DNA from: Aphanomyces cochlioides
Lineage: Eukaryota; Oomycota; Saprolegniomycetes; Saprolegniales; Verrucalvaceae
DNA: 64,000 nt
Assembly (NCBI GenBank): GCA_019828595.1
Contig: JAHQRK010000006.1
Coordinates: 248,001 to 312,000 of the forward strand
Direction of reading: 5' to 3'
Part shown: positions 2,937-54,160 of the stretch, piece after piece
Position numbering within the stretch: position 1 is the first letter of the stretch
How the letters are laid out: every line of letters begins with the position of its first letter
The notes under the pieces: generated by a model
Told to the model about the DNA's origin: nothing
The model's database searches: none
The model's input: only the letters and a program-made list of their open reading frames with translations
Position numbers and translations under genes: made by a program

Positions 2937-2989
2937 TAGAAGAGTTCGAGCCATGGAATGTATGTTACATATCCTGGTCGTAGCTTCTG

Positions 2990-3813: not shown

Positions 3814-3829
3814 CACATTCAATCAGCAC

Positions 3830-38193: not shown

Positions 38194-38550
38194 ATGCTCC
38201 TACTCTGTATGCTCCCCCGTCGTGCCGGGTTGATGCACATCCTTCCAGTCGATTGTGCAGGATTAGTGGAATTGTTTGCAAAGTTGGAGCTTGTTGACAA
38301 GATCAAACAAAACCCACGCTTTGCTCAACTGATATTTGTTGTGCCTCAAGGAATTGGCGACTCGTACAAGAATCAACAATTGATCACTCAAAATTTGCGT
38401 TTGGAAGACTTGATGGGAGCCGGCGTGAGATGTATTTCAGGGATTGGGCCAGTCCTGCAAAAGAAGTTGCACGACAAGAACATTTTTACTTGTTCACATT
38501 TGAAGGCTCATTCTAAAGATCCGCATTCTGAAAGACCATTTCCAAAGTAA
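38194..38550 (+). CDS. Possible C-terminal fragment of a CRN-like gene
   Basis: The frame contains LVELFAKLELVDKIKQNPRF, then LIFVVPQGIGDSYKNQQ and a stop at 38548. The L-I-F-V-V-P-x-x...D-x-Y-x-x-Q pattern is reminiscent of C-terminal nuclease domains of CRN/RHS proteins. No header or P-loop precedes it, and it overlaps the 3' end of the minus-strand CRN-like gene by a few dozen bases. It may be a degenerated paralogue. Confidence 0.3.
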   Translation: MLLLCMLPRRAGLMHILPVDCAGLVELFAKLELVDKIKQNPRFAQLIFVVPQGIGDSYKNQQLITQNLRLEDLMGAGVRCISGIGPVLQKKLHDKNIFTCSHLKAHSKDPHSERPFPK

Positions 38551-39808
38551 AGTTAGTTGCAAACCGCTCATAATGCCCAATGGTCCGATTGATCGTCAGC
38601 GATATCTCTTGCCTTCGTTCGTCAAGTTGTACGCACTTGAACGTACCACCGTCAAAAAGTTTTTCATGGGCGAGATTTTCAAACAACCATCCATTAAACG
38701 TAGACGCTTTTCCTGCACCGTCAAGCCATTTCATCAACTTTGCTCGTTCTTGGCTAAGTGTATCAAATCCCGAAATCTCAAACATTCAAGTCCATTGACT
38801 CGTTTATCCATTTGGGTGAGACGTTGCTGTTGTTCCAAATTACAAAATCATTAAACCAGTTTAACGGCGAGTTGGTTGTAAATCCGTATTCCAATCCAAT
38901 CCGAACCAAACTCGAGTGTTGCAAATGTTGGATCCTCTTCAGGAATGTAATGCAGCAGTCGATGAACTACAAGATTTAACGGCACAGACATTTCAAAGCA
39001 CGCTTGAACATCCTCCAACGTTTTAATCTTCTCAATCGCTTGTTCCATGGCGATCAATCCCTTTCGATACGCTCTGGCTGATTTTGCTAGACAATAGCGC
39101 GGGACACCACCAAACTGTTTATATCTCTCGGTCAATTCTTCGTCTGATATCTCCAAATTCAACACTTTGACGGCGTCACCCAACTCGCCCAATTCCCAAA
39201 CAGGCATATACAGCTCGCAATGAGCTTCGACATTCTTCCGCATCGAATCGAGCCAACCAAAATTGGGACTTGTGAAAGTTACCATTTTCGATCGCGCAGG
39301 TTCCACAGATGGCGGTCCATCATAGAGATGAATCGCATTTGAATCGTCTACTGGTAAATTTGGTCGATTGTTAACATATTGAGGCTGAGGTCTTTTATTT
39401 GGCTCAAACACGACACACTCCTTCAATTGCCGATCCTTGTTGAAAGACGCAGAAACAATAATAGCCTCGTGGTGTTCATTTCGGTATCGAGAAAAGAAGT
39501 AGTCATAAAAGATCGATTTGCCAATGCCTACACAAAACACACGCGTCTGTTATCCATCTTTTAATCGTATACAAGTTCAAACCTGGTGTTCCCGTCACTG
39601 AGATGTACTTGTATGTCTGCAGAAGTTCAAGTACACGATCATAATACGACGAGTACGCTTTTCTCACGTAGTATTCTTCCGCGCAATACTCGAAAGCAGT
39701 TGGCAAGTCGACAGTCACGTTCTGCACACCTTGCGCTTCGCCGGCCACGTTCATCTGCGGGGCAGGAGCTGGGACGGGACTTTGTGCTAGGTTCTGGCTG
39801 CCGTCCAT
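38513..39808 (-). CDS. CRN/RHS-like P-loop NTPase
   Basis: Exon 1 is 39808-39583; a 55-nt intron (39528-39582) sits inside the P-loop and joining the exons gives the Walker A motif GTPGIGKS. Exon 2 carries AIHLYDGPPS, MVTFTSPNFGW and LYMPVWELGEL, then FGGVPRYCLAKSARA, a pattern shared by oomycete CRN NTPases and trypanosomatid RHS proteins. A second intron near 38800-38855 leads to a C-terminal exon with STFNGWLFENLAHEKLFDGG. There is no typical CRN header; the N-terminus is Pro/Ala-rich. The ATG at 39808 is about 100-600 bp from the left limit of the viral insertion. Function unknown. Confidence 0.6.
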
Positions 39809-40403
39809 TTTGAAAGTGACGATATTACCGAATCATTGCATATCTCGTTGAATATTATCAACCAATCATGTGCAACGAAATCAGCGAATGGCAGCAATAC
39901 AAAATGTAAGGCTGTCAAAATCTCATATTAAAAATGTGTGCGATCTTCGTATTCCAACAAATATTCTTTTCAATTATTTAGAAGCAGTTAATGTGTTTCA
40001 TAGGGTGTTAACATTAAGTTCTACTACTAACTCTTCTTTAGGTTTTTGGACTATGATACAATGTATATCACAAAATATCTGTAAATTTCCATTTTGACTC
40101 CTGCGCAAACACTGCCCAAGTTGTTTGTTTTCAAAAAAATTAAAAATAGTGAAAAAACAGTTTGCGTCAATTTTCATCACTGTGGCCCCCATTTTGGACG
40201 GCATACTCCAATATCTCACAAGTATGTTGATCCGCATTTGGTGCAAATATATTAAAATTTGTTTTGCAATAAAACATCAAACAATTTGATCATATTTTAT
40301 ATTTATTCAAAACGGGACAATAACAATTGCACCTATTTTAATTATTGTAAAATTTAAAGCAAGATATAGAACATATTTATGTAATAATTACGAAAACCGT
40401 GAA

Positions 40404-40613
40404 ATGTTTGACCACGTAGAGATTTATAAAACAAACAATGATGCTTATATTGTAATTACAAGTCCATACGGAGATAAAGATTATGAAGGATTCTATGGAT
40501 TTAATAAAATCTATAAATTGTATAACGATTGGGCTACTACGTATTTTAAAAGAATGAGTAAAGCAGAAATAATTAACTGTAATAAAATATTTAAAAGCGA
40601 GTTTGGATATTAG
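40404..40613 (+). CDS. Small viral-type protein, unknown
   Basis: A 69-residue, AT-rich ORF (MFDHVEIYKTNNDAYIVITS...) with aromatic and lysine-rich composition like the rest of the insertion. No domain was recognised. It is the first ORF at the left side of the viral block. Confidence 0.45.
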   Translation: MFDHVEIYKTNNDAYIVITSPYGDKDYEGFYGFNKIYKLYNDWATTYFKRMSKAEIINCNKIFKSEFGY

Positions 40614-40633
40614 TATGTTTACATCTGTTTCAG

Positions 40634-40765
40634 TTTAACTCATAGTCAATGAAATAACCATATTTTTTGTCCATCATTTTATTGAATTTAACTCAATGTC
40701 AATAAAAGACGTGTTTTTATATGTCCATTTGATTGAAAATAACTCAATGTCAGTCATTATATATT
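40634..40765. repeat. Iteron-like direct repeats
   Basis: Three imperfect copies of AACTCA[TA/AT]GTCA occur at 40637, 40690 and 40741, spaced 51-53 nt, with further similarity between them (TTGTCCAT...TTGA). Position near the left side of the virus suggests terminal-region repeats, perhaps linked to replication or regulation. Confidence 0.6.
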
Positions 40766-40962
40766 TAGAGAGAAATGGTTAATCGAACTGACTTGATTTA
40801 TTATTGGAAAAATATGCCGTTTTCCCGACAAAAACCTGATGAACATAACAGACAGTCCAACATGTACTCACAAAAATTGAACATCCAAACTTGACCAATT
40901 CAAAAATTCAATATTTAATTAATTTTAAAAATACCTATCACCTATAGAATATATTAAAAATA

Positions 40963-41106
40963 ATGGAATTAAATTTCGGAAAATACAAAGCTAAGACTAT
41001 TCAAGAAGTTTTTGAGATTGATCAAAATTACTGTAAATGGTTAATAAATCAGGAAATGTTATTGTCAAACAAACCAGAAATTAAAACATATTTAACCGAA
41101 AATTAA
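40963..41106 (+). CDS. Small protein with G-K-Y-x-x-K-T repeat (unit 1)
   Basis: A 47-residue ORF, MELNFGKYKAKTIQEVFEID followed by a Y-C-K-W-L segment. This resembles short modules found in viral and phage proteins of unknown role. The next ORF (41130-41267) carries a second, similar module in another frame, so the two probably come from one two-module gene broken by a frameshift. Confidence 0.5.
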   Translation: MELNFGKYKAKTIQEVFEIDQNYCKWLINQEMLLSNKPEIKTYLTEN

Positions 41107-41129
41107 AAGATGCTGATTTGTCTTATAAA

Positions 41130-41267
41130 ATGCGATGGGGTAAGCATAGAAATCTAACTCTGAATAAAATTAAAGAAATTGACCCAAATTATATTGATTG
41201 GTTAAAAAATAATCAATATGTGATAGAAAATTGCCCAAAGTTAATATCTGAGCTTGAGCAATTTTAG
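41130..41267 (+). CDS. Small protein with G-K-H-x-x-x-T repeat (unit 2)
   Basis: A 45-residue ORF, MRWGKHRNLTLNKIKEIDPN followed by YIDWLKNN, paralogous to the module in 40963-41106. It ends at a TAG at 41265-41267, overlapping by a few bases the end of the protease remnant on the other strand. Confidence 0.5.
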   Translation: MRWGKHRNLTLNKIKEIDPNYIDWLKNNQYVIENCPKLISELEQF

Positions 41268-41560
41268 CTTTCAAATGTTTTATCGTTTAAATCGTGGAAT
41301 CCATAAAATAAATCCATACGATTATTCTGTTTTGCATATAACCAAAGCATACACCATATACCGCAATATTCAGCATACGTTGATTGATATTGTTTTTTGT
41401 TATGTTTTTTTATTCCCAAAATCAAAGGCGGTGGCTCGCCCATAGAATCAAAATATTCATTTTTATAAATCGCAGTCCAATGTCCAATTCCACCACCATG
41501 GTGGAATTGGACCTTAATAAACACGGTGCTGACGCTTTTATGAGCGCGGATGATTGGCAA
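41264..41560 (-). pseudogene. Adenain-like cysteine protease, N-terminus lost
   Basis: The minus-strand frame shows GHWTAIYKN (catalytic His), YFDSMGEPPP (Asp) and YAEYCGIWCMLWLYA (catalytic Cys), the order of the adenovirus-type maturation proteases found in Polintons. Family members have about 80-100 residues before the G-H-W; here that space is occupied by the start of the capsid gene on the opposite strand. The ORF therefore holds only the C-terminal half and is probably non-functional. Normally the protease cleaves capsid precursors during assembly. Confidence 0.7.
41482..41512. repeat. Hairpin at the capsid/protease junction
   Basis: Arms GTCCAATTCCACC (41482-41494) and GGTGGAATTGGAC (41500-41512) are perfect complements around a 5-nt loop. 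The capsid ATG at 41498 lies in the loop. This is also the point where recognisable protease sequence stops. Confidence 0.85.
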
Positions 41561-42859
41561 TCTATGTCTTTTTCTTCAGCAACGACTTCGTTATCAGGCG
41601 ATGGTTTTACAAACAATTTCTCAAATTGCACCGCTACTTTGGGAACTGTACCAACTGAGGCATTGTTGAAAGAAAATAATGGATTTATTTCTCGTATTTA
41701 CAGCAATCCACAACTTACTGGAAACATTGACTCATCGGGAAACTATACGGGTGGAGTAAATGCCTACAATTGGATTACACAACGATCTTCTGTAGCATCA
41801 ACCATTGCAGCTCAAAACGGCAAAGGAGCTTTTGTCGTAAATACTGCACCAGTGGCGGGCTCGGTTCTTGGTGTTTGGCATCATATGTTAAAAATTCGTC
41901 TTGTTGATCTTCATCCAATTTTTAAAGAATTGGATCTTATCGGAAATCCTCAATTGAAATTACGACTTAAAGTAAATAGTGGTTATTGCGATATTGCAGT
42001 TACTACTACTGGGCTAACGTTAGCTTCTACAACTATGACAAGCGGCAATACCGTTCCAGTTATGTTGGCCTCTGCTGATTCTGCAAACGCTCTTGCTGGA
42101 TGTAATACAGCTTCGACGACTGTTCGTTTAGCATTTGGTCCCCTTCAGAATAACATTACAACGCTAGCCCAAGCTGGGCAATACCTTCCATTTACAACAG
42201 CCAGATTAAATATTCCATTCTATGATATTGCTAATCCGTTACCGATTGTAAGTCAGCCTGTAAAGAACGTGAAATATCTTGATTGTTATGCTCAATATTT
42301 CCGAGGAAAAGCCGGCACTGGTGCTCTTTCTTCAGCTCAACAAAATGCTACATTCAATCTTCAATTATCTGGTTCTTGGAAAAATATCAAATATGTTTGT
42401 TTGGTACCATACAGCGAAACAAGCAGCGGACATTTTGCAAATTCGTCGGCTAATGGTGTAGAACAATTCCAAAGCCCATTTGATAGTGCGCCTTGGACTT
42501 GTCAAGCAGGTAGTTCAATTCGTAGCTTTCAAGTTCAAGTTGGAAATGACAACGTATTTAGTAAAACATTGGATTACGACTTTGAAGCTTGGAATGACGA
42601 ATTTAAGAAACTTGGAGCAATTAATGGTGGTCTTACCCACGAAATTTCAAATGGTTTGATTGATTTTCAAAAGTGGCAAACGATTCAGCGTATTATGGTC
42701 GCCGACTGTTCTCGTATTACTAACCCAGACGTTCCACAATCAGTTATCGTAAGCGGTGTCAATGCTTGCTGCCAAGGAACAAATTGCTTGATTTTAGTTG
42801 TGTATGAACGAGATCTTTCTGTTGACCGTTTAACTGGGGAAATTCATCATTGGACTTAA
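41498..42859 (+). CDS. PLV major capsid protein (double jelly-roll type)
   Basis: The preferred start is the ATG at 41498 (ACCATGG context); one at 41480 is in frame. The product is about 453 residues. Its C-terminal half has conserved PLV capsid features: QSPFDSAPWTCQAGSSIRSF, VQVGNDNVFSKTLDYDFEAW, FKKLGAINGGLTHEISNGLI, QRIMVADCSRITNPDVPQS and VVYERDLSVDRLTGEI. In the family this protein forms the pseudo-hexameric capsomers of an icosahedral shell. The gene is fully open, and convergent with the fibre-like gene, with a small hairpin between the two stops. The jelly-roll folds themselves are inferred from the family, not visible in sequence. Confidence 0.85.
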   Translation: MVELDLNKHGADAFMSADDWQSMSFSSATTSLSGDGFTNNFSNCTATLGTVPTEALLKENNGFISRIYSNPQLTGNIDSSGNYTGGVNAYNWITQRSSVASTIAAQNGKGAFVVNTAPVAGSVLGVWHHMLKIRLVDLHPIFKELDLIGNPQLKLRLKVNSGYCDIAVTTTGLTLASTTMTSGNTVPVMLASADSANALAGCNTASTTVRLAFGPLQNNITTLAQAGQYLPFTTARLNIPFYDIANPLPIVSQPVKNVKYLDCYAQYFRGKAGTGALSSAQQNATFNLQLSGSWKNIKYVCLVPYSETSSGHFANSSANGVEQFQSPFDSAPWTCQAGSSIRSFQVQVGNDNVFSKTLDYDFEAWNDEFKKLGAINGGLTHEISNGLIDFQKWQTIQRIMVADCSRITNPDVPQSVIVSGVNACCQGTNCLILVVYERDLSVDRLTGEIHHWT

Positions 42860-42876
42860 ATACACCAAAAAAACTA

Positions 42877-42890
42877 CTAAGCGAGCTTAG
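42877..42890. terminator. Possible 3'-end hairpin between convergent viral genes
   Basis: A 6-bp stem CTAAGC/GCTTAG with a 2-nt loop followed by a T-rich run (42896-42902) lies between the capsid and fibre-like gene stops. It could act as a transcription end signal for the viral genes; this is an inference. Confidence 0.35.
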
Positions 42891-42932
42891 AATTGCTTTT
42901 TTTATTACTAAGGGTCGAGAGACTTCGCTCTA

Positions 42933-45149
42933 TTACAGCAAAGCGCTGCTTTTTGTGCGTCGAACAGGTTTAGTTGTCAGTTGTTCCATCTGCATCTGCT
43001 GCTTTCCAACAACTTGAGTAAGATTATCAATTTTCTTAAGCGCACGTTTAAGAGCAGAATGCAGCAATGGTACAATACTAATCACATCGACAACAAGGCG
43101 GCTGTCAGATCCAATCTGAATAACATCACCATTAACACACTCAATAATTTCCTCGGGCAATGGTTCATCCGAATCAGTAGCGCCAACTAACACACTCAAA
43201 CCATGTTTCACGAGTTCTTGTGCACCATAGCCATAATGGCGTTTATCAGGATTTGCCTTATAGCTATACTCGATAGGAGTGATATTACGGACAAATCGCT
43301 CGGATTGATCTTGAGATAGATCGATTACATCTGATTTTGTTCTCAGATCTGAAAGACAATCAATTTCACCAGAAGCAACCATAATCCCACCACTCGTCTT
43401 AAGAGAGAAGTTTCTATTACTAAATCCAGTCGCCTGACCAACTGAACTACTCGTAATGAAAGTAAAGCCCGATCCAGTTGATTGTGAGCCAGTACCAAGG
43501 ATTTCCAGAGGACATCCAGGATTGTTTGTGCCCACGCCCCAAAAACCGTTAGATGACTTATAGAAGAGTGAGGATTGAATGTTGATATCTTTGTATTGAG
43601 ACGATGAATAATCGAAGCATTGTAGAATGCCAACACTCGAACCAGTCGAATAATGCATATGCATACCTGGACCTGTGGTGCTAAGATCACCCGCATTGAG
43701 ACCATAGCAATGAACTCCACCATTAGCAATATTGAGATTACCACCAGTACTCAGCTGCATCTGCTGAGTACCAGTGATAGCCGGCGTAGTTGAGTTGTTG
43801 TAAAACCAAGTATGCAAGCCACCAGACGTATAATTGAGTGATAAGCTCGATACGCCGAGCATGTAGGATGGGCTTGTGTTATTGGTCTGAGCAAGACAAA
43901 TGATATTGTCTTTCGATGTATTAGTTCCGAGATCCATTTTATGACTATTGCGCGCTGAGATACCAGATAGTTGAATCTGCCCATTATTAGCAAACGTATA
44001 ATATGTGCTTGTTCCTCCATTCGTACTCGATAGCACAATATCGCCTCCAGAACTTGTATTGATAGTCGAATTAACGGTTGCACTATAATACATTGCCAAG
44101 TGGTATCCAACGCTTGTAATCGAAAGGGTCCCGCCAGTATTCGAAGTAGAACCAATCGTAGCCGTAGTTGCTGAGATCGATGCGCCAGAATTGATAGCTC
44201 CACCAGTATTGATAGCTCCTGATACGCCCATTCCTCCAGCGATTACCAAACTACCATTCGACTGCGTTGTTGAAGCAATATTAGAATTGATATTGATTAT
44301 ACCAGAAGCTGCTACTTCGAGTAATCTGCTACCTCCGTAAAATCCAATTTGAAATCTATTATTGGTTGATCCGCTGCCAGCATAATAAAAGGAAAGTTCA
44401 GCTTGATTATTATTGTTGGTTGATTGACCAAGCGTAATATAAGAAGTGCCAGCAATAGCAAGATTATTGTTTAAGCAAGATATTGCTCTTGATGTATCTG
44501 TGCTCGTTCCTTGAAGTATAGATCCGCTTACTGATGCATTACTACCTACATACAGTTTCTTAGCAATAGCGCACCCACCATATATAGTCATTGAGCCGCC
44601 TGCACTCGAAGATGTAGCATCCGAAGTGCTTAGAAAACCTGTATTGCCTGCAGTGGTCATACTCATCAGAAATGATCCATTCCAAATGTAGAGCTGACCA
44701 GGAAGCTGTGAATTCGTCGATCCACGGCTACCAATCTCGAACGTACCTTGGTCATTAATAAATGCGCACGTCGATCTTCCCGCAGTATTTGACGAACTAT
44801 TTAGATTGATTTGCGCGGTTCCATTAATGATATTGATATCGCTACCGGCATAAATTTTCTTGGACACCGCCAATCCACCTGCAGTAATCATCGAGCCTGT
44901 AATAGTGCTTGATGCATCGGTAGTGCTTGTGTTTGTGTAAATGCCAGTCATACCAATCGAGTTGATTCCACTTATTGAAAGCCCTGAATCTAAAATTAAT
45001 GCCTTTTTAGCACTTGCTTGCCCAGCAGTTAGATTACTGATATATGAGACTCTAGGATCACTTTTTCTCAAATAAACATCACTTGTGTAATTTGACGGAT
45101 TGTATGTTGAACTATTTATAGTAGGTGTATTAGCTATGATTCCACTCAT
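42933..45149 (-). CDS. Fibre-like protein with peptidase S74 chaperone domain
   Basis: A 738-residue protein rich in Ser, Thr, Gly, Asn and Ile. The body has repeating modules with a G-S-x-x-I-x-G-G-L/M-A/G-V pattern followed by Y-x-G-S (e.g. SMITAGGLAVSKKIYAGSD, SMTIYGGCAIAKKLYVGSN, SLVIAGGMGVSGAIN), likely beta-rich trimeric fibre segments. The last 130 residues form an S74 intramolecular chaperone: CLSDLRTKSDVIDL with the Ser-Asp...Lys cleavage motif, then FVRNITPIEYSYKANPDKRH and YGYGAQELVK. Such domains help fold phage and virus fibres and then cut themselves off. It probably forms a receptor-binding or surface fibre. Gene open; ATG 45149. Confidence 0.8.
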   Translation of the reverse strand: MSGIIANTPTINSSTYNPSNYTSDVYLRKSDPRVSYISNLTAGQASAKKALILDSGLSISGINSIGMTGIYTNTSTTDASSTITGSMITAGGLAVSKKIYAGSDINIINGTAQINLNSSSNTAGRSTCAFINDQGTFEIGSRGSTNSQLPGQLYIWNGSFLMSMTTAGNTGFLSTSDATSSSAGGSMTIYGGCAIAKKLYVGSNASVSGSILQGTSTDTSRAISCLNNNLAIAGTSYITLGQSTNNNNQAELSFYYAGSGSTNNRFQIGFYGGSRLLEVAASGIININSNIASTTQSNGSLVIAGGMGVSGAINTGGAINSGASISATTATIGSTSNTGGTLSITSVGYHLAMYYSATVNSTINTSSGGDIVLSSTNGGTSTYYTFANNGQIQLSGISARNSHKMDLGTNTSKDNIICLAQTNNTSPSYMLGVSSLSLNYTSGGLHTWFYNNSTTPAITGTQQMQLSTGGNLNIANGGVHCYGLNAGDLSTTGPGMHMHYSTGSSVGILQCFDYSSSQYKDINIQSSLFYKSSNGFWGVGTNNPGCPLEILGTGSQSTGSGFTFITSSSVGQATGFSNRNFSLKTSGGIMVASGEIDCLSDLRTKSDVIDLSQDQSERFVRNITPIEYSYKANPDKRHYGYGAQELVKHGLSVLVGATDSDEPLPEEIIECVNGDVIQIGSDSRLVVDVISIVPLLHSALKRALKKIDNLTQVVGKQQMQMEQLTTKPVRRTKSSALL

Positions 45150-45217
45150 ATTTTTAATAGAGTTGAAGACAAATAAGTATATATTCTAAAATATATATAA
45201 TATTAGCTTTCTAATAA

Positions 45218-45901
45218 ATGAGTTCCAATGAAATAGAGGACTGGGGAGGAAAATTACCTAAGGCTTATAAAAGTAAGTCTCATGGTATAAACAAAGATCT
45301 TAAAATTCAGAACCTTTTCAGAGCTATCGTGCTGGGACCCAGCTATTCTGGTAAGACGAATCTAATTTTCCATATTCTCAAGCACTCTCCTCATATTTAC
45401 AGCCATTTGCATATTATTGCTCGCAATCCTGAGCAAAGTCTGTATAATTACTTAAAAGATAAATTAAAAGACTTCATTACGATTTATGACCCAAATGAAC
45501 CACCTCCTTCTGTTGACGATATTCCAAATAATGGCTCATTACAATTAGTTATCATCGATGATTATTCAAATGACAAAATGCTTCAAAAAAATATATTTAC
45601 GCATTATTTCACCCGTGGAAGACATAAATTGTTAAGCACTATATTTTTAGCTCATTCATATTTTGACACATATAAAACCATTAGATTGAATAGCGATTAT
45701 GTATTTATTTTAAAAGCAAATAGCAAAAGAGATCTTCAAATGGTTTGTAAGGATTTTAACATTCCTGAAGTTAATGAAGACAAAATGATCAAGGCATACA
45801 ATAAAGCTACTGCAAGCAAAGGCCAAGCTCTGTTTGTTGATTCTGTTAATCAAGAATTGAGGTATAATTTTGGGAAAAAAATTGATTTGAATACACTTTG
45901 A
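45218..45901 (+). CDS. FtsK/A32-like genome-packaging ATPase
   Basis: A 227-residue protein. Walker A is GPSYSGKT at residues 40-47, Walker B is LQLVIIDDYS at about 105-112, and the conserved GRHKLLSTIFLAHSYFD with a following IRLNSDYVFILK matches the A32/HerA-FtsK class of viral packaging ATPases. The enzyme would pump the viral genome into the capsid. The ATG at 45218 follows an AT-rich spacer of 68 bp that separates it from the divergent fibre gene. Fully open. Confidence 0.88.
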   Translation: MSSNEIEDWGGKLPKAYKSKSHGINKDLKIQNLFRAIVLGPSYSGKTNLIFHILKHSPHIYSHLHIIARNPEQSLYNYLKDKLKDFITIYDPNEPPPSVDDIPNNGSLQLVIIDDYSNDKMLQKNIFTHYFTRGRHKLLSTIFLAHSYFDTYKTIRLNSDYVFILKANSKRDLQMVCKDFNIPEVNEDKMIKAYNKATASKGQALFVDSVNQELRYNFGKKIDLNTL

Positions 45902-45980
45902 TAAGCTTGCTTTCAGCAGTTAGAGAGACAATTATTTCAATCAAATAATAAATAAATGATATAAAATAACATAAGAAAAA

Positions 45981-46846
45981 ATGAGCTCACTTATTGTTCT
46001 TAATTCAACTCATATTGTGAATAATGGCTATAATAATACGCTAAGATATACATTTGGGAATAGTGCAGTCAATTTTAGCAATATGGAAATTGCTGTTGCT
46101 GGGATTCAATTGTATAATTCTCAATTCAATATTAATTCAACCTTGTACGGAAATAATACATTTCAAATTATTGTACCATATGGCGCTACTACATCGACCA
46201 TATCTATCACTTTACCTAATGGTTATTACAGTTATGCTGATATTCAAAATTATGTAGCTTCTAAACTTATCGCGGCTGGTGCATATCTGATTGATTCTAA
46301 TGGAAACAATGTGATATATTTTAATATTTCAGAAAATTCTACATATTATGGTTGCCAAATTGATTTATTACCTACTCCTTTAAGTTTACCAACAGGCTGG
46401 TCGCTACCAGCCAGTGGGTTATATTCAACAGGCGTACCAACAGGTGGCTATGCTCCGCAAATTATCATTCCAAGTGGATTTAATTTAATAGTTGGCTATC
46501 AAGTTGCAACATTTCCTCCCTCTCGTCAAACGACTGCTCAAACGCCCCCTCGTTTTTAAGTAGTTTTACTCCACAAGTAAACCCTGTTTCAAGCTTTTTA
46601 GTTCGTTGTAATTTAGTTAATAATCCATACACTTCTGTTCCTGATGTTTTAACGACTTTTACATCACAAAACACCACTATTGGGGATTTAATAGATGTAA
46701 GATATCCTGAGTATTCTTGGGTAGAAATTTCTGATGGCTCAAGACCATACATAGAAGTGATAATTTGCGATCAGAATTATAATATTGTCAAGTTTGAAGA
46801 TAGTCAAATTTTAATTCAGTTGATTATTAGACCGAAAAAAAATTAG
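45981..46846 (+). pseudogene. Penton-like minor capsid protein, one frameshift
   Basis: The first frame (45981-46559) reads MSSLIVLNSTHIVNNGYNN, with MEIAVAGIQLYNSQFN and ITLPNGYYSYADIQNYV, the pattern of PLV/virophage minor capsid (single jelly-roll, penton) proteins. The frame shifts near 46520-46540 and the remaining part continues in another frame through PVSSFLVRCNLVNN and YPEYSWVEISDG to a stop at 46844-46846. Total length would be about 285 residues, normal for the family. One base change therefore inactivates the gene, unless the base is a sequencing error. Confidence 0.75.
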
Positions 46847-46857
46847 CTTACTATTCT

Positions 46858-47064
46858 CTAATTATTTCTTTCGATCTCTATAATTGCTTTTTTATGTGCA
46901 TATGATCTTTGATGACTAAAACGATATCTCACGTTTACTGATTCACCGCAATCACAAATGTATCGGTTTCTTTTGTATGGATTCAGATTTCGTTTAACTT
47001 GAGCATCAATCATTTCTTGAGTCTTCTTTATTAATGTTAAATCGATAAGCATTGTTGAAAGCAC
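46858..47064 (-). CDS. Small zinc-finger protein
   Basis: A 68-residue protein with RYICDCGESVNVRYRFSHQR followed by SYAHKKAI: a C-x-C-G...H...H arrangement like the single zinc fingers common in PLVs and giant viruses. Its role (DNA or RNA binding, perhaps late transcription) is not known. The stop lies 12 bp from the end of the convergent penton gene. Confidence 0.6.
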   Translation of the reverse strand: MLSTMLIDLTLIKKTQEMIDAQVKRNLNPYKRNRYICDCGESVNVRYRFSHQRSYAHKKAIIEIERNN

Positions 47065-47166
47065 AAGCTTATACTCTATATAGAGGTATTTTTTTTACTA
47101 CCGATTTTTTACAAAAGCTTGATGTTTTGGTGTTCAAAGCTCATGGTCAAACGTAAAATGGTATAT

Positions 47167-47646
47167 TTATACTAGTCGAAAACTACCACCACGTTTCTTC
47201 GCACGAACAAGGGCCATACGATCTTTAGCCGCTTGAGAGCCCTTTTGAAAACCTACGCCGCTAAGTTTACGAATGCCTTCCCTAATAGGGGCCAATTCTG
47301 GATTACTATATGCGATTGCATCTCCAACTCCACTTAGTACAGGTTTAATTACACTATTCCAAGCCGTACTCAAACCTGATCTCAAACTATCCCAAATGCT
47401 TCCGCCTTGGTGATGGCTTAAATCGTGATGAATTTCCCCTTCAGTAAAATCCAAACGAGCTCCTTTATTAGCTTTTTGAGCTTGAACTATTTTGCTATAA
47501 TTAGCTGGATGCACAAGCATTGGCTTACTTCCTTTTAAATCATCAGCGCTAAATACAACTGTACCACCTTTGGATGCTTTAGAAAGTTTTTTCTTTGAAA
47601 GAGATGATGATACGTGAACTACTTTATAACCTCCTGTTCCTTTCAT
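47167..47646 (-). CDS. pVI/pX-like capsid-associated protein
   Basis: A 159-residue basic protein. The N-terminal part has GSKPMLVHPANYSKIVQAQK. The middle HHQGGSIWDSLRSGLSTAWN is followed by a hydrophobic/amphipathic stretch and ELAPIREGIRKLSGVGFQKG. The end is Lys/Arg-rich (RAKKRGG). G-G-S-I-W helical and basic C-terminal features resemble adenovirus pVI/pX-type internal capsid proteins that Polintons and PLVs encode. It could link capsid and DNA or disturb membranes. Assignment is by pattern only. Confidence 0.5.
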   Translation of the reverse strand: MKGTGGYKVVHVSSSLSKKKLSKASKGGTVVFSADDLKGSKPMLVHPANYSKIVQAQKANKGARLDFTEGEIHHDLSHHQGGSIWDSLRSGLSTAWNSVIKPVLSGVGDAIAYSNPELAPIREGIRKLSGVGFQKGSQAAKDRMALVRAKKRGGSFRLV

Positions 47647-47717
47647 ATTTCGTTGATTTAAACGAAGTCTATATTTTATGAATTACATAAAAAATAAAAA
47701 TATATTATTAAATCATC

Positions 47718-47924
47718 TTAAAGAGCAAATGTCTTTGATTTTTGCTCTAATTTCTTTTTTCTTTTATATTCATCAATAGATGGTCCATATCTTTGAAAAC
47801 TTGATTTTGGTTCTGTATTATCAATGATTAAGTTTTCCATCGTTTCAATTAGTCTATCTTCATTTTCTTTGGCCTTTTTATTATATATTTTTAAAAATGG
47901 ATGTTTAACATTAATCGTTTTCAT
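47718..47924 (-). CDS. Small viral-type protein, unknown
   Basis: A 68-residue, Lys/Glu-rich protein (MKTINVKHPFLKIYNKKAKE...). No domain was seen. The gene begins 5 bp after the stop of the upstream 443-residue gene, so it is likely co-transcribed with it. Confidence 0.5.
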   Translation of the reverse strand: MKTINVKHPFLKIYNKKAKENEDRLIETMENLIIDNTEPKSSFQRYGPSIDEYKRKKKLEQKSKTFAL

Positions 47925-47929
47925 AGCTT

Positions 47930-49261
47930 CTATATTGTCATCATCAAAATATCATTGAATTGTTTATCGCTTAAAATTCCATTTTGAAATAAATGAATCG
48001 ACATCTTCTTTAGTTCCGATTTGATCAAAGGATTATCATTACCGATCTTGATTTCACCAATGAGCTTATTGAATTCAGCAACATATTTATCACTACCATC
48101 TCGTGGATCGCAAAGAGTTTCTTTAAACGAATTTAATAGTTTACAAACTTTTAGAGTATCGTAAAACGCAATTTTATCTTTGTTGTCAAGCTGATTATAA
48201 AGACTATAATCAATAACTCCATCAAATAACAAGATTTTGATGATTTGAAGTAGTTTATCTGACATTTTTAATCGTTTAAAACAGGAATTACCAGACGGAT
48301 GGCGTAAACTTAAATATCCTTGACCAAGAGCTTTCAAATTGACATATTTAGCTCCAAGAGGTCGATATAAATAATCTTTTTCAAAATTATGTAAATGCGA
48401 AATTCCCGCGCCGATTAAGCCTCGTCCAATGAGTTTTTTACGGGCGATTAATTTAAAGCCTTGGCCTTCCATTTTGATATCAGGTTCGCTTTTAATTGAC
48501 ATTTGAGTAACGCCTTGTCGGATGCCATTCACACGTCTATTTTCATCAATAATTTTGTCAATTTTTTCTTTTGTAGCAACCCAATCGTAATCAATTATAC
48601 GTTTATTCTTATTTTCATGATCACTCCGTATGGTAAATAGTCTTCCCGATCTTCCCAAGTATACACTCTTATCTTCATCACCATTTAGTAATATCGGAGA
48701 AATCTTTCTTGTTTTAAAGAAGTTCCAATTGTCCTTATAAAGTTTTATAATTTGTTCTCTTGGAGTTTTTTTGTTATCCTCTGCGGGAAATATTGGTTTT
48801 GACTCTTCGTCGTCTTCATCAGACAAAATTCTGAAACGATTTCTTGTTTCGACAGGGGGCATATTTTCTAATTTGATTTGATCCCTTGTTTTAATTCTGG
48901 GTTCGTATCTTGGATTACTTTCATATTGAGTTCCAGTTGTAATACCCATTGGCTCGGTTTGAGCAGATCTGGCTTTCGTATTTCGTTTAGTTTGGGTTTG
49001 TATAGTTCTACCGTTTGATTCGGTTTGAACTTCAATGGTTCTTGGGTTTGATGAATCTGTTTGAATTTCAATTGTTCTGCCAATATTTGAAGACATTTGA
49101 GGTTTTGGTAGAATTACATTTGATGCAACATCACTACTCCAAATAGCAGTTTCATATGCCTTTTGTTTAATAGCATCGATCTTTTTATCAAGTTTGATTT
49201 GATCATAATATTCTTGTAATTTTGCTTTTTTATCAGCGAGATCCTTATAGCTCGGATACAT
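47930..49261 (-). CDS. Conserved PLV protein of unknown function
   Basis: A 443-residue protein. The N-terminal part is coiled and contains four degenerate repeats of the type R-T-I-E-I-Q-T-D/E-S (residues about 60-110). The central part is acidic. The C-terminal part has GQGFKLIARKKLIGRGL, LGAKYVNLKALGQGYLSLRH, PSGNSCF and a helical region LLNSFKETLCDPRDGSDKY. The Y-x-N-x-x-x-L...L-S-L-R-H-P-S block resembles uncharacterised proteins of Mavericks and PLVs. No enzymatic motif was found. It lies between small viral genes and the integrase, all on the minus strand. Confidence 0.6.
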   Translation of the reverse strand: MYPSYKDLADKKAKLQEYYDQIKLDKKIDAIKQKAYETAIWSSDVASNVILPKPQMSSNIGRTIEIQTDSSNPRTIEVQTESNGRTIQTQTKRNTKARSAQTEPMGITTGTQYESNPRYEPRIKTRDQIKLENMPPVETRNRFRILSDEDDEESKPIFPAEDNKKTPREQIIKLYKDNWNFFKTRKISPILLNGDEDKSVYLGRSGRLFTIRSDHENKNKRIIDYDWVATKEKIDKIIDENRRVNGIRQGVTQMSIKSEPDIKMEGQGFKLIARKKLIGRGLIGAGISHLHNFEKDYLYRPLGAKYVNLKALGQGYLSLRHPSGNSCFKRLKMSDKLLQIIKILLFDGVIDYSLYNQLDNKDKIAFYDTLKVCKLLNSFKETLCDPRDGSDKYVAEFNKLIGEIKIGNDNPLIKSELKKMSIHLFQNGILSDKQFNDILMMTI

Positions 49262-49299
49262 TTTACTACGAATTAATTAACGTATATATATTTGGTAGT

Positions 49300-50388
49300 T
49301 TATATTACCTGTGCAAAATAATTTTTTTCTAATTGACTCATTTGATTTTTATTAAATATTCTTAGATTCTTCTGAGGCTCCCATGATTCACTTCCATCAG
49401 CCCATTTAACCAGATATTTGTATTGACCATTTTTTAGTTTCTTGTGACTTAAAATTTTCTCAGCTTCATAAATGTCATTTGCTCTTCCATCAGCGTCAGT
49501 AGTTTGAGCTTCTACTATTTTTATATCATTAACTGGTTTATATACGACGTGATTATTTTTTGATCGTAAATGCGTCTTTAGTCCATCTAATCCAATAAAT
49601 TCATAAACGGATTTTGAATATTTAGCACCTTCTTTTTGAAATGGATTTTTTGGTTTCAATTTGTAACGTACTTTTGAGCCAATCGGGATGCTTTCTAAGA
49701 CTTGCTTTGCTACATTTTGGTTATGATCATTTTCGGAAAATATGACTTTTCCTTTCATCTCATTTGGCGTTGCATGAATGGATGAATGTTCCGTGTCATT
49801 GTAATTTGAAATTGCATCGTTTAGATGCTTTTGAGTTAGCTTTTTAAAGATTCCTGTCTCGAACATTTTGGTTAGTCTTGATTTTAACGTTCTAATGAAT
49901 CGATCTACCTTGCCTAGAATTGTATGATCCCCAGACTCTCCAGCGTAATGACTGATATGTTCTTTTGTTAACAGTTCTTGAACTTTTTTATTCATAAACT
50001 CATTTCCATTATCTGATGTAAACGAATGTGTTTTGTTTCGAGAAAGAAATTCTTCTATTGCTTTTCTAACTACAGGCGCAGTTTTGTTTTTCAACAATTT
50101 GGCGAAGCCGATTCGACTGTTAATATTGATTGCGATAAATATTGGTTGTTTTTGCCAAAAAGCTAAATCCATTTGCCATGAGTTTGGATTGTTGCTTGCA
50201 ATTTTGAACTCAGGAAATTTCTTGTTTTGAGCTGAATGCTGTTGAATATCAGTTTGTTTCTTATACCAATCGCGAACTTGTTTTAGAGTAATAGAATTAT
50301 TAAGTTCTTTTGCTTTTTTATACAATGCTGTTGCGCTAATGAATCCAATCTTTGGATCATAGTATAATTTTTTAAGAAGTGCAGACAT
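49300..50388 (-). CDS. Retroviral-type integrase with chromodomain
   Basis: A 362-residue integrase. The catalytic core shows the first Asp in WQMDLAF (about residue 72), the second in FTSDNGNEF (about 125) and, 35 residues later, KVDRFIRTLKSRL. The third acidic residue is Asp where retroviral enzymes have Glu. The C-terminal end is a chromodomain: YEAEKILSHKK, YKYLVKWADGSESWEPQKNL. It would insert the viral genome into host DNA and may use the chromodomain to choose chromatin. The N-terminal zinc motif of retroviral integrases is not obvious. Gene open; 10 bp upstream lies the polymerase stop. Confidence 0.88.
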   Translation of the reverse strand: MSALLKKLYYDPKIGFISATALYKKAKELNNSITLKQVRDWYKKQTDIQQHSAQNKKFPEFKIASNNPNSWQMDLAFWQKQPIFIAININSRIGFAKLLKNKTAPVVRKAIEEFLSRNKTHSFTSDNGNEFMNKKVQELLTKEHISHYAGESGDHTILGKVDRFIRTLKSRLTKMFETGIFKKLTQKHLNDAISNYNDTEHSSIHATPNEMKGKVIFSENDHNQNVAKQVLESIPIGSKVRYKLKPKNPFQKEGAKYSKSVYEFIGLDGLKTHLRSKNNHVVYKPVNDIKIVEAQTTDADGRANDIYEAEKILSHKKLKNGQYKYLVKWADGSESWEPQKNLRIFNKNQMSQLEKNYFAQVI

Positions 50389-50397
50389 ATTATATAT

Positions 50398-53300
50398 CTA
50401 AGCAAATGAAACTTTTCTTGTAAACTTCAATCTCTTGCTTACCTTTTGTGTCTTAGTGTTAATGTCGATTGAACAACATTCGCTTAGATCAAATTCCATT
50501 GATTCACCATTATACATCTTCACATACTTTTCGAGAGGATTTTCTTTAAGAAGCTTTCCAGGAATACCCTTCATACGAATATGATGTCCCTCAACATCAT
50601 TACCATCGCAAGATAGCACATTCACATAGCTTTTTTTTCCTAAGAATATTGACTCCTTAGCATAAACCTCTCCTTTTGAACCTTCAAGACTAAAATCTGT
50701 ATGAAATTGCCCCATTTGCTTTCCAATTAGTTCTCTTCCATATTTTTCTTTAAAAGCGATTGCCAATTTTGGAACCCCATCACGATCAATCATCATCGAA
50801 TCTGTATCCTGATACCAAATGTTAGCTTTAATATCTTCTGCAAGACACATAACTTCATTCATAATATGTTTTGAAGAATCGAGTATCTGAACTCCAAGAT
50901 GAGCTGGTGAATAATGTTCATAGAGATATTTGTGTTCTTCAAATAATGCCAAATCATCAGTAATTGGCGTTCTTGAAATCATTTTATGAATCTTTCGTTT
51001 TGTTCGCTCTTTAATCTCGTCAGATCCTTTGACAAGTATCTTCTCTTTTACAATTGGTTTTTGAATTAGCTTTCCGTAAGCGCTATTGAGGAGCAATTTG
51101 ATTCCTTCTTGTAGAGGATTGCCTTCTTTTTTCAACTTAAGTCGTTCGTTGAATAATTCTTTTACTGCTTCTACTATCTTTGGATTAAAACCTTCATCCC
51201 AATAACAACCTTCAATTACCGTATATGTAGCATTTTGAAATTTTACAATATCTTCAAGAGCTTGCTTTCCAATAACCATTGTTTGTCCTATGATATCATT
51301 TGTAAAACCACGTGATCCATCTTGTTGAATACTTAAAAGTGGAAAACTTTGATGTTTTCCGATAGAGTTAAATCTAACTCGAGCAATGTAATAATCAGCA
51401 TTATTCGGAATTGTATCCTTAAAGAATTTTGCTTTACCTTTTACATAACCGCTTAATATTGATTGTCCTGATGGATATAGTGAAACAGCATCAAAATCCG
51501 ATAATTGATGTTTAATGTGATACTTCTTATTATCTCGAGTCATAACTCGTCCTCCAACAATAGCTTGTCTGATAAATCCCAGAACGATTCCATTTTGTTC
51601 ATAGCAACCATCAAAGCAACCTTGATTATGTTGAATTGCATAAGCAATTGATGGCATAGACATAAATCGATATACATCAATGTTGAAACGATTAATAAAC
51701 ATCATTCTGAAAGCTTCAAAACAAGTGTGAAGAACATCAACATCGCGATTACAATAATGTATAGCATACTTCTGGATATCGATTTGGTCTTCAATTACTG
51801 CACCGATCTTGTTTGCGTTGGCAATCATAGCTCCTTTGTCTTCAAATCCATTGAGATAGCTAAGCTTCCACATTGACTTGAAGTTGTTTTCATTTATGAA
51901 GTCATGAGGAAATGATTCTTTTTCTAAGTTAAGATCTTTGCTTGCATCCTTGAACATCTTTGGAAGATTTGCAAGTTTGCTATTAATAAAACTCATTGAG
52001 CATTTGACTACAAGTTCAGAGCTTTTATAAAAGCAATGAGCTTGCTTTAGTCGAGTTCCGCATTCTATCATATTGCTCTTTTGAGAAAAGCTTGTTACGT
52101 GTTTCATTAGAAAACGCAAATCGAATCCAGCATTGTGAGCCCAAAGTAAATTATGACTCTTTTCGGGAATTGACTCTAGAAATCGTTGAGCACAGTCAAA
52201 CCCATAAAAGTTTTGTGTTTCGCCTGTTGAATACAGCTTTCTAAATTTATACTTTAGGATCTTGAAAGATATGCAGTAGGCAACGTGCTCGTTATCATTA
52301 TTTACTAATGTTTCAAAATCGAAATAGATAACATTAAAGTTGATTATTTCTTCATATTGTTTAGTGTATTTATTAATTACTTGATTGAAAGGCGATTGAC
52401 CAAATTTCATTGTACCATCAACACGTCCAATTTCTTTGAATGTATTCTCATCAAAGTCTTCTTCATATAATGAATCAACTTTTTGATACTCATTGTTAAG
52501 TAGTTTAGGAACATTACTTTGAGTAATAGGAATAAGTAATTTATCTCTGTTGTGATATAAATGTGAAATGACTTCAAAACTGTCAAGAAACTTGATTCGT
52601 TTTGAATTATAACTAACTCGTCCGTGATGAAGTATAAATTCAGTCGATCCTTCTATTTTTACAATTTCTGGATTATTAAGAGCTGTTAGAGTGATTTTAG
52701 TTTCTTTAATAGCAAATACGTGTTTTGGCGTTACTCCAAGACGAATTACATTGTTACTATGAGGTCCATAATTATTAATATTATAACTTTTAACTCCATT
52801 ATTGTTTTTATAGGTTTTTACTTCCAATCTTAACTTAAACTTTTCTGCTATTTTTTTAAACAAATTAGTTGTAATACCTGAATGAAACATTAGTTGCTTA
52901 ATTTTATTAACAATGACTTTTGAAACTCCTCCTTGCTCAAGAGCATATAGAAAGCATGGAATTTCTGATTCTTTTGGAAGACCATTTGGTGATTCAGGAT
53001 ATACTTGAAATTGGTCAAGTAAATAATCTGCTTTTGTTAAATAACGGAAAAAGTTTTTGCGAGATGATCTGGATTGCTTTGGATCTTCAATCCATTCTAA
53101 CGTTATCATTGTTGTTGGAAGAATGTTAAGATCAACATCAGCTCCGGATGTGTATTCATTATTTTCAGTTATATAAAGATTTTCAATATTTACTTGATTA
53201 GAATTCAAATGATACGTTCGAAGAGTTGATCCATCTATATCCAGAAAATGAACTAATAAGTTTTTGTCGGCAGGAGCAATGATGTTTGGACGAATTCGCT

Positions 53301-53571
53301 TAAATTGTTCAAGAAGCAAAGTTGTTGTTTGATAACTGTTAACCTTCTTTAATGCTTTGAAATCACTTAATTGTGATTTAGCTTTATACATCTTAAAGAC
53401 TGATGCAATTTTAGTCTGAGAGTCAGCTTTACGTTGTGGTTGATTTAGGATTTCTTGGATCTTGGATATTTTCATATCCCATCTAACGGGGAGACCAAGT
53501 GATTTAGCCTGTTGATAGACTACTGACTTGGCTCTAGTTGCTTTAATTGCATTATTAGCTTTTGAAGACAT
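50398..53571 (-). CDS. Protein-primed family B DNA polymerase (pPolB)
   Basis: A 1057-residue protein. The exonuclease motifs are YFDFETL (Exo I, about 417), LLWAHNAGFDLRFL (Exo II, about 477) and YCNRDVDVLH (Exo III, about 607). Polymerase motifs are SDFDAVSLYPSG (A, about 692), LLLNSAYGKL (B, about 825) and WYQDTDSMM (C, about 920). The insertions and overall order are those of protein-primed B-type polymerases of Polintons, virophage relatives and PLVs. The N-terminal 400 residues are less conserved and begin with a Lys-rich, SAP-like helix pattern. It would replicate the linear genome with a terminal protein primer. Fully open. Confidence 0.92.
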   Translation of the reverse strand: MSSKANNAIKATRAKSVVYQQAKSLGLPVRWDMKISKIQEILNQPQRKADSQTKIASVFKMYKAKSQLSDFKALKKVNSYQTTTLLLEQFKRIRPNIIAPADKNLLVHFLDIDGSTLRTYHLNSNQVNIENLYITENNEYTSGADVDLNILPTTMITLEWIEDPKQSRSSRKNFFRYLTKADYLLDQFQVYPESPNGLPKESEIPCFLYALEQGGVSKVIVNKIKQLMFHSGITTNLFKKIAEKFKLRLEVKTYKNNNGVKSYNINNYGPHSNNVIRLGVTPKHVFAIKETKITLTALNNPEIVKIEGSTEFILHHGRVSYNSKRIKFLDSFEVISHLYHNRDKLLIPITQSNVPKLLNNEYQKVDSLYEEDFDENTFKEIGRVDGTMKFGQSPFNQVINKYTKQYEEIINFNVIYFDFETLVNNDNEHVAYCISFKILKYKFRKLYSTGETQNFYGFDCAQRFLESIPEKSHNLLWAHNAGFDLRFLMKHVTSFSQKSNMIECGTRLKQAHCFYKSSELVVKCSMSFINSKLANLPKMFKDASKDLNLEKESFPHDFINENNFKSMWKLSYLNGFEDKGAMIANANKIGAVIEDQIDIQKYAIHYCNRDVDVLHTCFEAFRMMFINRFNIDVYRFMSMPSIAYAIQHNQGCFDGCYEQNGIVLGFIRQAIVGGRVMTRDNKKYHIKHQLSDFDAVSLYPSGQSILSGYVKGKAKFFKDTIPNNADYYIARVRFNSIGKHQSFPLLSIQQDGSRGFTNDIIGQTMVIGKQALEDIVKFQNATYTVIEGCYWDEGFNPKIVEAVKELFNERLKLKKEGNPLQEGIKLLLNSAYGKLIQKPIVKEKILVKGSDEIKERTKRKIHKMISRTPITDDLALFEEHKYLYEHYSPAHLGVQILDSSKHIMNEVMCLAEDIKANIWYQDTDSMMIDRDGVPKLAIAFKEKYGRELIGKQMGQFHTDFSLEGSKGEVYAKESIFLGKKSYVNVLSCDGNDVEGHHIRMKGIPGKLLKENPLEKYVKMYNGESMEFDLSECCSIDINTKTQKVSKRLKFTRKVSFA

Positions 53572-53687
53572 AATTTTTCAGATCTATATAATTACAATTT
53601 TTCTTTCAAGATCAAATTGTTTTTCTTGAAGATGTATATGAGTTGGAATAAAAAAATATAGCTTAGAAAATATCAAAATTCTGTGTC

Positions 53688-53843
53688 TTAAACATTGATT
53701 TGTCTTAACAAATTAACTTCTCTTTTGTAGTGATTTCTAGCATTAATTCGATCCAAGATGCGTTGTTGATGTTTGTAGTAATAATCGTGATTCACCTGAA
53801 CTCTTGGTTTTTTGTCTTCGGGTGATTTCTTTGGTGGAGCCAT
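53688..53843 (-). CDS. Small basic viral protein
   Basis: A 51-residue protein, MAPPKKSPEDKKPRVQVNHD, followed by YYYKHQQRILDRINAR. The K/P-rich start and Y-Y-x-K-x-x-x-R-I-L helix recall small basic proteins of phages and large DNA viruses, often annotated as unknown. It is the last gene at the right side of the viral block. Confidence 0.5.
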   Translation of the reverse strand: MAPPKKSPEDKKPRVQVNHDYYYKHQQRILDRINARNHYKREVNLLRQINV

Positions 53844-53860
53844 TTGTGATTATTTGTTGT

Positions 53861-54160
53861 ATTATACTATAAATAATTATTGTTCAAGATCAAATGAATT
53901 TTAAAATTTTCTGTATGAAGGTCAAGATTATGCTGGTGATGCAAAATGCTTTGAGTGGTGATCATTTTGCCTTTGGACACTTCCACAAGTGTTAATTGTG
54001 TTTTTTGCTCGAGGGTGTCTCTAGCGTATGGTTGTGGAAATGGGTGAGAATCCATTCTTAGCTAATGGATGATGCCTTACTAATGCTTCTCGTCATGAGA
54101 ATTTTGAAGTGGCCACGATATACCTTTAACAGCTATTACTTTGGTCGACGATAGACTTAC
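53861..54160. other. Right border region of the virus
   Basis: AT-rich viral sequence gives way to host-like sequence somewhere between 53860 and about 54135. No inverted copy of the left end and no target duplication could be identified. The intron-like start GTAAGT at 54155-54160 marks the end of the lipase fragment. Confidence 0.4.

What the first reader, a model, noticed from the sequence alone, without database searches (positions are those of the whole stretch)
39900..53860. Integrated Polinton-like virus with a nearly full virion gene set in an oomycete genome
Seen: a 14-kb AT-rich, nearly intron-free block with pPolB, integrase-chromodomain, A32-like ATPase, major capsid, penton-like and fibre-like genes, plus a protease remnant, between ordinary oomycete genes with introns. 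Known: this gene set defines Polintons/PLVs, which can form virions. Inference: a recent endogenous virus that may have lived with the oomycete, since the largest genes are open.
Basis: partly seen in the sequence, partly recalled or inferred. Interest (0 to 1): 0.88.

Follow-up and report, generated by a model that had tools for sequence, protein, structure and literature searches.

The report
Oomycete provirus carrying Crinkler-type cargo
This is a decayed copy of a small DNA virus that has inserted itself about twenty times into the genome of a water mould, and its overlooked left end carries a shuffled gene of the family that water moulds use as weapons, which suggests that viruses may help move and remix those genes.

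Summary
The window has a truncated Polinton-like provirus (38241-54140, not 39900-53860): PolB, RVE-chromodomain integrase, A32 ATPase, S74 fibre, mavirus-type capsid. Twenty near-identical copies lie elsewhere in the genome; complete ones are ~17.2 kb with 280-bp terminal inverted repeats and 6-bp target duplications (7 of 8 tested). Oomycete PLVs of this kind are known. This copy is damaged: left repeat lost, left arm rearranged, capsid and protease candidate cut by a ~0.6-kb deletion, penton candidate truncated.

It carries a spliced Crinkler/RHS-type NTPase gene. Exon 2 is open in 20 of 20 other copies, although alleles differ by up to 14% in DNA and are mosaics at a scale of ~50 bp, while the viral side of the same alignment differs by 0.5% on average. 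A second PLV family (9 copies, both repeats found) carries a canonical Crinkler (Pfam, 1.2e-22) in the same slot, with parts exchanged among the three copies compared. 32 of 48 capsid loci carry such a gene. Best reading: an exchangeable conflict-gene slot in PLVs; its function is inferred.

The parts
38241..54140 (.). Truncated Polinton-like provirus, lineage A (left repeat and about 0.9 kb of the left end missing)
   Evidence: DNA matches to other copies begin at 38241 and end at 54140
53861..54140 (.). Right terminal inverted repeat, 280 bp
   Evidence: Recurs inverted at the left end of 18 of 20 other copies (40 of 61 candidates scored); repeat ends aligned
38241..38858 (.). Rearranged 3' pieces of the cargo gene (A 38241-38523, B 38518-38762, C 38758-38858)
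   Evidence: Order and orientation differ from other copies
38851..39540 (-). 5' part of cargo exon 2: Crinkler/RHS-type NTPase; in other copies an open frame of 471-473 codons
39581..39808 (-). Cargo exon 1, ends inside the Walker A motif (intron ~39529-39580 inferred)
   Evidence: spliced public homologues P0122 and P0124
40963..41264 (+). Small ORF related to ExoX-like C-terminal domain, in two frames here
   Evidence: PF20600 1.1e-18 for the lineage-B counterpart
41270..41512 (-). Remnant of protease candidate (name recalled from its motif)
   Evidence: Residues 44-124 of 125, 86% identity
41507..42859 (+). Major capsid protein without its first ~135 residues (the listed ORF starts at 41384 in unrelated sequence)
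42933..45149 (-). Fibre-like protein with C-terminal S74 chaperone domain
   Evidence: PF13884 4.5e-7
45218..45901 (+). A32-like packaging ATPase
   Evidence: PF04665 2e-7
45981..46559 (+). Penton/minor capsid candidate, truncated
   Evidence: 192 aa against frames of ~287 in other copies; no Pfam match over a cut-off
47167..47646 (-). ORF of 159 aa, no family found
47930..49261 (-). ORF of 443 aa, no family found
49300..50388 (-). RVE-type integrase with chromodomain
   Evidence: PF00665 2.6e-6 (below cut-off), PF00385 4.2e-7
50398..53571 (-). Protein-primed type family-B DNA polymerase
   Evidence: PF03175 1.9e-27; 16 other full-length frames at 100% rounded identity

Best explanation
The feature is one decayed copy of a recently amplified Polinton-like provirus of an Aphanomyces close to A. 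euteiches. Shown: the family inserts with 6-bp target duplications and 280-bp repeats, encodes polymerase, integrase, packaging ATPase and capsid, and carries a cargo gene between the left repeat and the capsid. In lineage A the cargo is a spliced STAND/AAA+-type NTPase of the Crinkler/RHS family; in lineage B it is a true Crinkler with Ubl header and (in the copy tested) a PD-(D/E)XK nuclease. The lineage-A cargo stays open under purifying selection while its segments are exchanged by short-tract recombination among otherwise near-identical elements. Inferred: the product acts inside the oomycete cell as an NTP-regulated nuclease in conflict with other DNA (competing PLVs, giant viruses or host copies); variety in its NTPase part is favoured; co-resident or co-infecting elements exchange it during replication. 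Such carriage would also spread and remix Crinkler-type genes in the host genome.
Confidence: 0.6

Rival explanations
1. Ordinary Polinton-like provirus; the cargo is a host gene captured by chance that hitch-hikes, and its variety merely reflects repeated exchange with host gene copies.
For: Stand-alone relatives exist at C2:1504k, C3:1431k and C78:2549k with no capsid or polymerase match nearby; the homology of two of them examined by DNA ends near the gene's start. Older lineage-A copies carry other, partly broken left arms.
Against: 20 of 20 frames open despite pS 0.10; fewer amino-acid changes than neutral (179:99 against 2.90:1 expected, p 0.0003) and no stop where 12 are expected. A related kind of gene in the same slot in lineage B, 9 of 9.
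Confidence: 0.2
2. The cargo is a pathogen effector in transit: the virus mainly supplies the oomycete with Crinklers that act on its plant host.
For: Lineage-B cargo has the Crinkler header; PMC5289972 (passages; section 11) describes CRN action in host nuclei.
Against: Lineage-A cargo shows no header domain by Pfam, and the near-identical A. euteiches proteins P0124 and P0134 have none visible. The same section describes CR proteins in free-living eukaryotes and a proposed origin against invasive DNA.
Confidence: 0.11
3. The cargo mosaics are artefacts of assembling some twenty near-identical 17-kb repeats.
For: Such repeats are hard to assemble, and raw reads could not be examined.
Against: The same mosaics occur in A. 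euteiches records: P0134 225 of 225, P0124 396 of 397, P0135 212 of 214 residues. Flanks are distinct, with matching 6-bp duplications in 7 of 8. Variety peaks in one gene and is low on either side.
Confidence: 0.04

Closest known systems
Gossevirus (GKS1) group Polinton-like viruses of oomycetes (PMC7805220, PMC10120064; passages seen)
   Same: Integrated in oomycetes in many copies; RVE and pPolB in some; terminal repeats and short target duplications; capsid relatives in Phytophthora and other oomycetes.
   Different: The passages and searches seen mention no Crinkler-type cargo; no labelled GKS1 reference was compared here.
Crinkler/RHS-type (CR) proteins: P-loop NTPase with REase-superfamily nuclease (Zhang 2016 as told in PMC5289972, section 11 read)
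   Same: Walker A motif in the spliced homologues, STAND/AAA+ fold, homologue named Crinkler by a source; lineage B has the header and a PD-(D/E)XK match.
   Different: Here located between the terminal repeats of a provirus; lineage A lacks the Ubl header; short-tract mosaics.
Polinton repeats beside CRN genes of Phytophthora sojae (PMC3726527, one passage seen)
   Same: CRN genes associated with Polintons: the most abundant repeat in the flanks, at 63 duplicated CRN genes.
   Different: There flanking repeats; here whole genes inside elements with repeats, in a fixed slot.
Avs-type antiphage STAND ATPases
   Different: No PADLOC match for the two homologues tested; animal and plant STAND and AAA+ proteins score almost as well; likeness of working parts only.

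Membership tests
Polinton-like virus / Polinton | Family-B protein-primed type DNA polymerase | tested here: met
   PF03175 1.9e-27; priming itself not tested
Polinton-like virus / Polinton | RVE integrase | tested here: met
   PF00665 2.6e-6 but 28.1 bits, below the cut-off of 32.6, with chromodomain PF00385 over its cut-off; 6-bp duplications in 7 of 8 copies
Polinton-like virus / Polinton | Double-jelly-roll major capsid protein | tested here: met
   Full-length form of other copies, modelled as the identical P0002: mavirus capsid E 4.6e-14, probability 1.00, TM 0.47/0.53. The window's own copy is truncated
Polinton-like virus / Polinton | Packaging ATPase | tested here: met
   PF04665 2e-7
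Polinton-like virus / Polinton | Penton (minor capsid) protein | tested here: inconclusive
   Conserved gene without Pfam match over a cut-off; fold not predicted
Polinton-like virus / Polinton | Maturation protease | tested here: inconclusive
   Motif recalled; no useful Pfam match
Polinton-like virus / Polinton | Terminal inverted repeats | tested here: met
   280 bp at both ends of 18 of 20 other copies; only the right one remains in the window
Gossevirus (GKS1) group | Capsid of the GKS1 clusters | tested here: inconclusive
   Homologues in Phytophthora and Aphanomyces, and oomycete capsids are said to fall in GKS1; no labelled reference compared, no tree
Crinkler (CRN) effector, lineage-B cargo | Ubl/LxLFLAK-type header, PF20147 | tested here: met
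   1.2e-22 in L071; 9 of 9 lineage-B copies over cut-off
Crinkler (CRN) effector, lineage-B cargo | Translocation into and action on a host cell | not testable with these tools
   No experiment
Crinkler (CRN) effector, lineage-A cargo | Ubl/LxLFLAK-type header, PF20147 | tested here: not met
   No match in exon 1 or exon 2; lineage-A cargo is therefore not filed as a Crinkler effector
CR-type NTPase-nuclease, lineage-A cargo | P-loop NTPase domain | tested here: met
   Walker A in spliced homologues, fold of P0122; RHSP profile only E 0.039, below cut-off
CR-type NTPase-nuclease, lineage-A cargo | REase-type nuclease domain | tested here: inconclusive
   Invariant Q401, T403, H408 fit a recalled motif; no profile match; that half barely covered

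The most novel reading that the evidence does not exclude
Polinton-like viruses of oomycetes have a dedicated, exchangeable slot for Crinkler/RHS-type conflict genes and act as a diversification engine for them: copies in one genome recombine the cargo at a scale of tens of bases, exchange headers and nucleases, share the same mosaics with a sister species or strain, and so feed the host's Crinkler repertoire. The original role of these genes would be virus-versus-virus or virus-versus-host-DNA conflict, with effector use secondary.
Probability: 0.38. Interest if true: 0.9.

Novelty: new variant of a known kind. Interest (0 to 1): 0.72.

Why it matters
How Crinkler genes multiply, move and exchange domains is open; helitrons have been proposed (PMC5289972, section 11), and Polinton repeats were seen beside them (PMC3726527, one passage). 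Open Crinkler/RHS-type genes between the repeats of two virus families, in a fixed slot and with visible shuffling, give a concrete vehicle and a place to watch it. A STAND-type NTPase in a provirus also bears on the idea that PLVs defend protists against giant viruses.

Tried and rejected
Readings dropped. (a) Cargo is a pseudogene: I first thought so because L020 listed no long ORF, but the frame ran off the locus; one search shows 471-473 open codons. (b) The left-arm inversions in the window are a site-specific switch: the inverted repeats listed in L020 are 10-14 bp, and none of the 20 other copies shows the window's orientation; treated as damage. (c) Positive selection on the cargo as a whole: pN/pS is 0.44-0.96 by segment, so not claimed. 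(d) Change confined to amino-acid sites: synonymous sites vary more (pS 0.100, pN 0.053), so exchange of old alleles is likelier.

Searches that gave nothing: IMG/VR for capsid and cargo, four scans; Pfam for the full capsid; PDB sequences for the capsid, only ribosomal protein S18, a fluorescent protein, haemoglobins and the like, judged chance (for the window piece); PDB sequences for the cargo profile, in the 60 rows shown of 73 DNA polymerases matched near the C-terminus and one dystrophin row; BFVD folds, one match at E<=0.001 and not informative; PADLOC for P0122 and P0130. Species: one host gene is 404 of 416 identical to A. euteiches, other Aphanomyces 64-73%; A. cochlioides is recalled as a possibility, not shown.

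Rows dropped: L029 (partial) from the 19-copy diversity and linkage counts; the last ~25 codons of exon 2 were not held. In one search four of seven loci (L003-L006) were laid in the wrong orientation; the capsid N-terminus rests on L002, L007 and L008. In one search the widest distance bin had 15 pairs only (four-gamete 1.00, r2 0.33) and does not follow the trend in r2. The enrichment treats copies as independent, which they are not; it uses 150 of 184 header candidates.

Full report
Observation. The window is G000:C56:248001-312000 of a 76.2-Mb assembly in 94 contigs. The capsid has no Pfam match. Its full-length form, taken from another copy, has 164 relatives at E<=0.001 (120 listed), the best an identical environmental protein, with named proteins of Aphanomyces, Lagenidium, Phytophthora and Thraustotheca. 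The model of that identical protein (mean pLDDT 81.0) matches the mavirus capsid (E 4.6e-14, probability 1.00).

Borders and copies. DNA searches of the genome give 20 further near-identical copies. At the right end 21 places match, the window included; at the left, 19 others match the whole query and one a part of it. A 280-bp sequence, 53861-54140 in the window, recurs inverted at the far left of 18 of the 20 other copies; 40 of 61 candidates were scored, so 18 is a lower bound. Paired ends are about 17.2 kb apart. Eight copies had both flanks held: 7 of 8 show the same 6 bp on both sides (six of these also computed). The eighth, C13:223543-240773, instead has 987 bp of identical flank in inverted orientation. 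In the 7 copies whose repeats could be compared they differ at 0, 0, 0, 0, 0, 1 and 2 of 280 positions. Seventeen copies, this one included, have a full-length polymerase frame without stops at 100% rounded identity. The expansion is recent. No copy is singled out here.

State of this copy. It lacks the left repeat. Its left arm, 38241-38858, holds pieces that other copies have in another order and orientation. About 0.6 kb is missing at 41499/41507, with the first ~135 residues of the capsid and the start of the protease candidate. The penton candidate departs after residue 188 from a longer frame. Copies with these frames open exist.

Diversity. In an alignment of 19 left arms (171 pairs; L029 dropped) the mean pairwise difference is 0.0546 on the cargo side (maximum 0.1408) and 0.0052 from the protease candidate rightwards (maximum 0.0329). 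By 100-bp steps it is 0.008-0.269 in the cargo, declines through the upstream region, and right of that is mostly 0.000-0.006, with a few steps of 0.010-0.034. Between the left repeat and the gene it is 0.000-0.005 in 8 copies, and at the right end 0.0014 in the polymerase part of 20 copies. The peak sits between two strands before the Walker B motif, where three allele classes occur among the 20 copies and the window has a fourth. On 163 cargo sites the four-gamete fraction is 0.04 under 20 bp, 0.28 at 20-50, 0.50 at 50-100, 0.65 at 200-400 and 0.74 at 800-1600; r2 falls from 0.55 to 0.11, a trend reached by 0 of 1000 permutations. The 23 core sites give 0.08, though they are few. By blocks there are 18 haplotypes in 20 copies. 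pS is 0.100 and pN 0.053 over up to 449 codons (190 pairs). Of 283 distinct variants about 12 should be stops and none of the frames has one; amino-acid changes are 179 to 99 silent ones where 2.90 to 1 is expected (p 0.0003, variants taken as independent). So the gene is kept open while its parts are exchanged. The same mosaics occur in A. euteiches records: P0134 225 of 225, P0124 396 of 397, P0135 212 of 214 residues, while one host gene is 404 of 416 identical. That argues against assembly error and hints at recent sharing, with the caveat that only one host gene was compared and the species is not certain.

Other elements. Nine older relatives of lineage A (L030-L038) share DNA with the window only right of ~40910. 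Left of it six (L033-L038) share another arm with a broken, nuclease-like ORF (by eye), two (L031, L032) share a third, and L030 (C20) has a 296-codon frame that by eye resembles another CR NTPase-nuclease (no Pfam match); a Crinkler header with a 608-codon frame begins next to it and is probably the same gene. Repeats were not sought for these. Lineage B (capsid 61% identical) has nine copies with both repeats of ~0.25 kb found, 16.6-17.7 kb apart. Nine of nine have a PF20147 match over the cut-off between the repeats, without stops in the match. In L071 it is the gene at 3428-4651 (-): PF20147 1.2e-22, PD_DExK 3.5e-16. Among three copies compared as proteins, C18 and C1 share the C-terminus (99% of 947 bp) but not the second half of the header, and C78 has C1's header half with another C-terminus beyond the IHVLVVV junction, although the capsids of C18 and C78 score the same. 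Of 48 capsid loci, 11 have a header within 6 kb where 0.8 is expected (copies are not independent), and 21 more, this one included, have the header-less gene: 32 of 48.

Mechanism. Shown by sequence: integration with 6-bp duplications, recent spread, cargo between repeats, purifying selection, recombination. Inferred from gene families: protein-primed replication, packaging, capsid formation. Inferred further: exchange of cargo between co-resident elements during replication, and action of the cargo as a regulated nuclease on competing DNA. I hold this reading at 0.6, against an inert passenger (0.2), an effector in transit (0.11) and artefact (0.04).

Known and new. PLVs of oomycetes with RVE and pPolB, terminal repeats and 5-7 bp duplications are published, with up to 299 capsid copies in one genome (PMC7805220, PMC10120064; passages). 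S74 fibres are common in PLVs (PMC12220804; passages). Polinton repeats were the most abundant repeats near duplicated CRN genes in P. sojae (PMC3726527; one passage), and CRN genes lie in a Phytophthora contig with giant-virus genes and Polintons (PMC8204020; passages). Searches of the held library for crinkler with polinton (2 papers), CRN with polinton and oomycete (the same 2) and a wider set (25 of 259 listed) listed no paper on Crinklers as cargo between PLV repeats; subscription papers and preprints are not held, and Zhang 2016 is not held and known only through PMC5289972. So: known kind of virus, known kind of protein, new combination with unusual diversification.

Noticed in passing
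window 18053-20017 (+), 28438-29934 (-), 5408-6385 (-): Related P-loop NTPase genes in the host flank, two of them much alike; weak STAND matches below cut-off (E 0.001-0.002) for the first two, the third not scanned. They resemble Crinkler-type genes by eye.
   Followed up: partly
window 1860-2954 (-): ORF of 364 aa that looks like a mariner/Tc1-type transposase (recalled from its motifs, not scanned).
   Followed up: no
G000:C13:223543-240773 (L067, L047): This copy has 987 bp of identical flank in inverted orientation on its two sides instead of a 6-bp duplication; either an inverted duplication of the site or an assembly palindrome.
   Followed up: partly
G000:C17:1114427-1114482: A 56-bp stretch of the left arm is inverted and 100% identical relative to the window, beside a deletion; a further small inversion in this arm.
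   Followed up: no
window 36180-36637 and 54161-54597: The host sequences on the two sides of the provirus are 67% similar in the same orientation, as if it lies between tandem relatives.
   Followed up: no
G000:C2:1504k (L069), C3:1431k (L070), C78:2549k: Stand-alone relatives of the cargo with no capsid or polymerase match near; C3 has an open frame and a hypervariable segment of one allele class, C2 one of another.
   Followed up: partly
G000:C31:271748 and C6:90041: Crinkler headers within a few kb of more distant capsid or penton-candidate matches (C31:275049, C6:83850), perhaps further PLV lineages with Crinkler cargo.
   Followed up: no
P0147 and P0002: A 35% cargo homologue comes from environmental contigs of up to 17,012 bases, about the length of a complete PLV, and an environmental protein is identical to the lineage-A capsid; their surroundings could not be fetched.
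   Followed up: no
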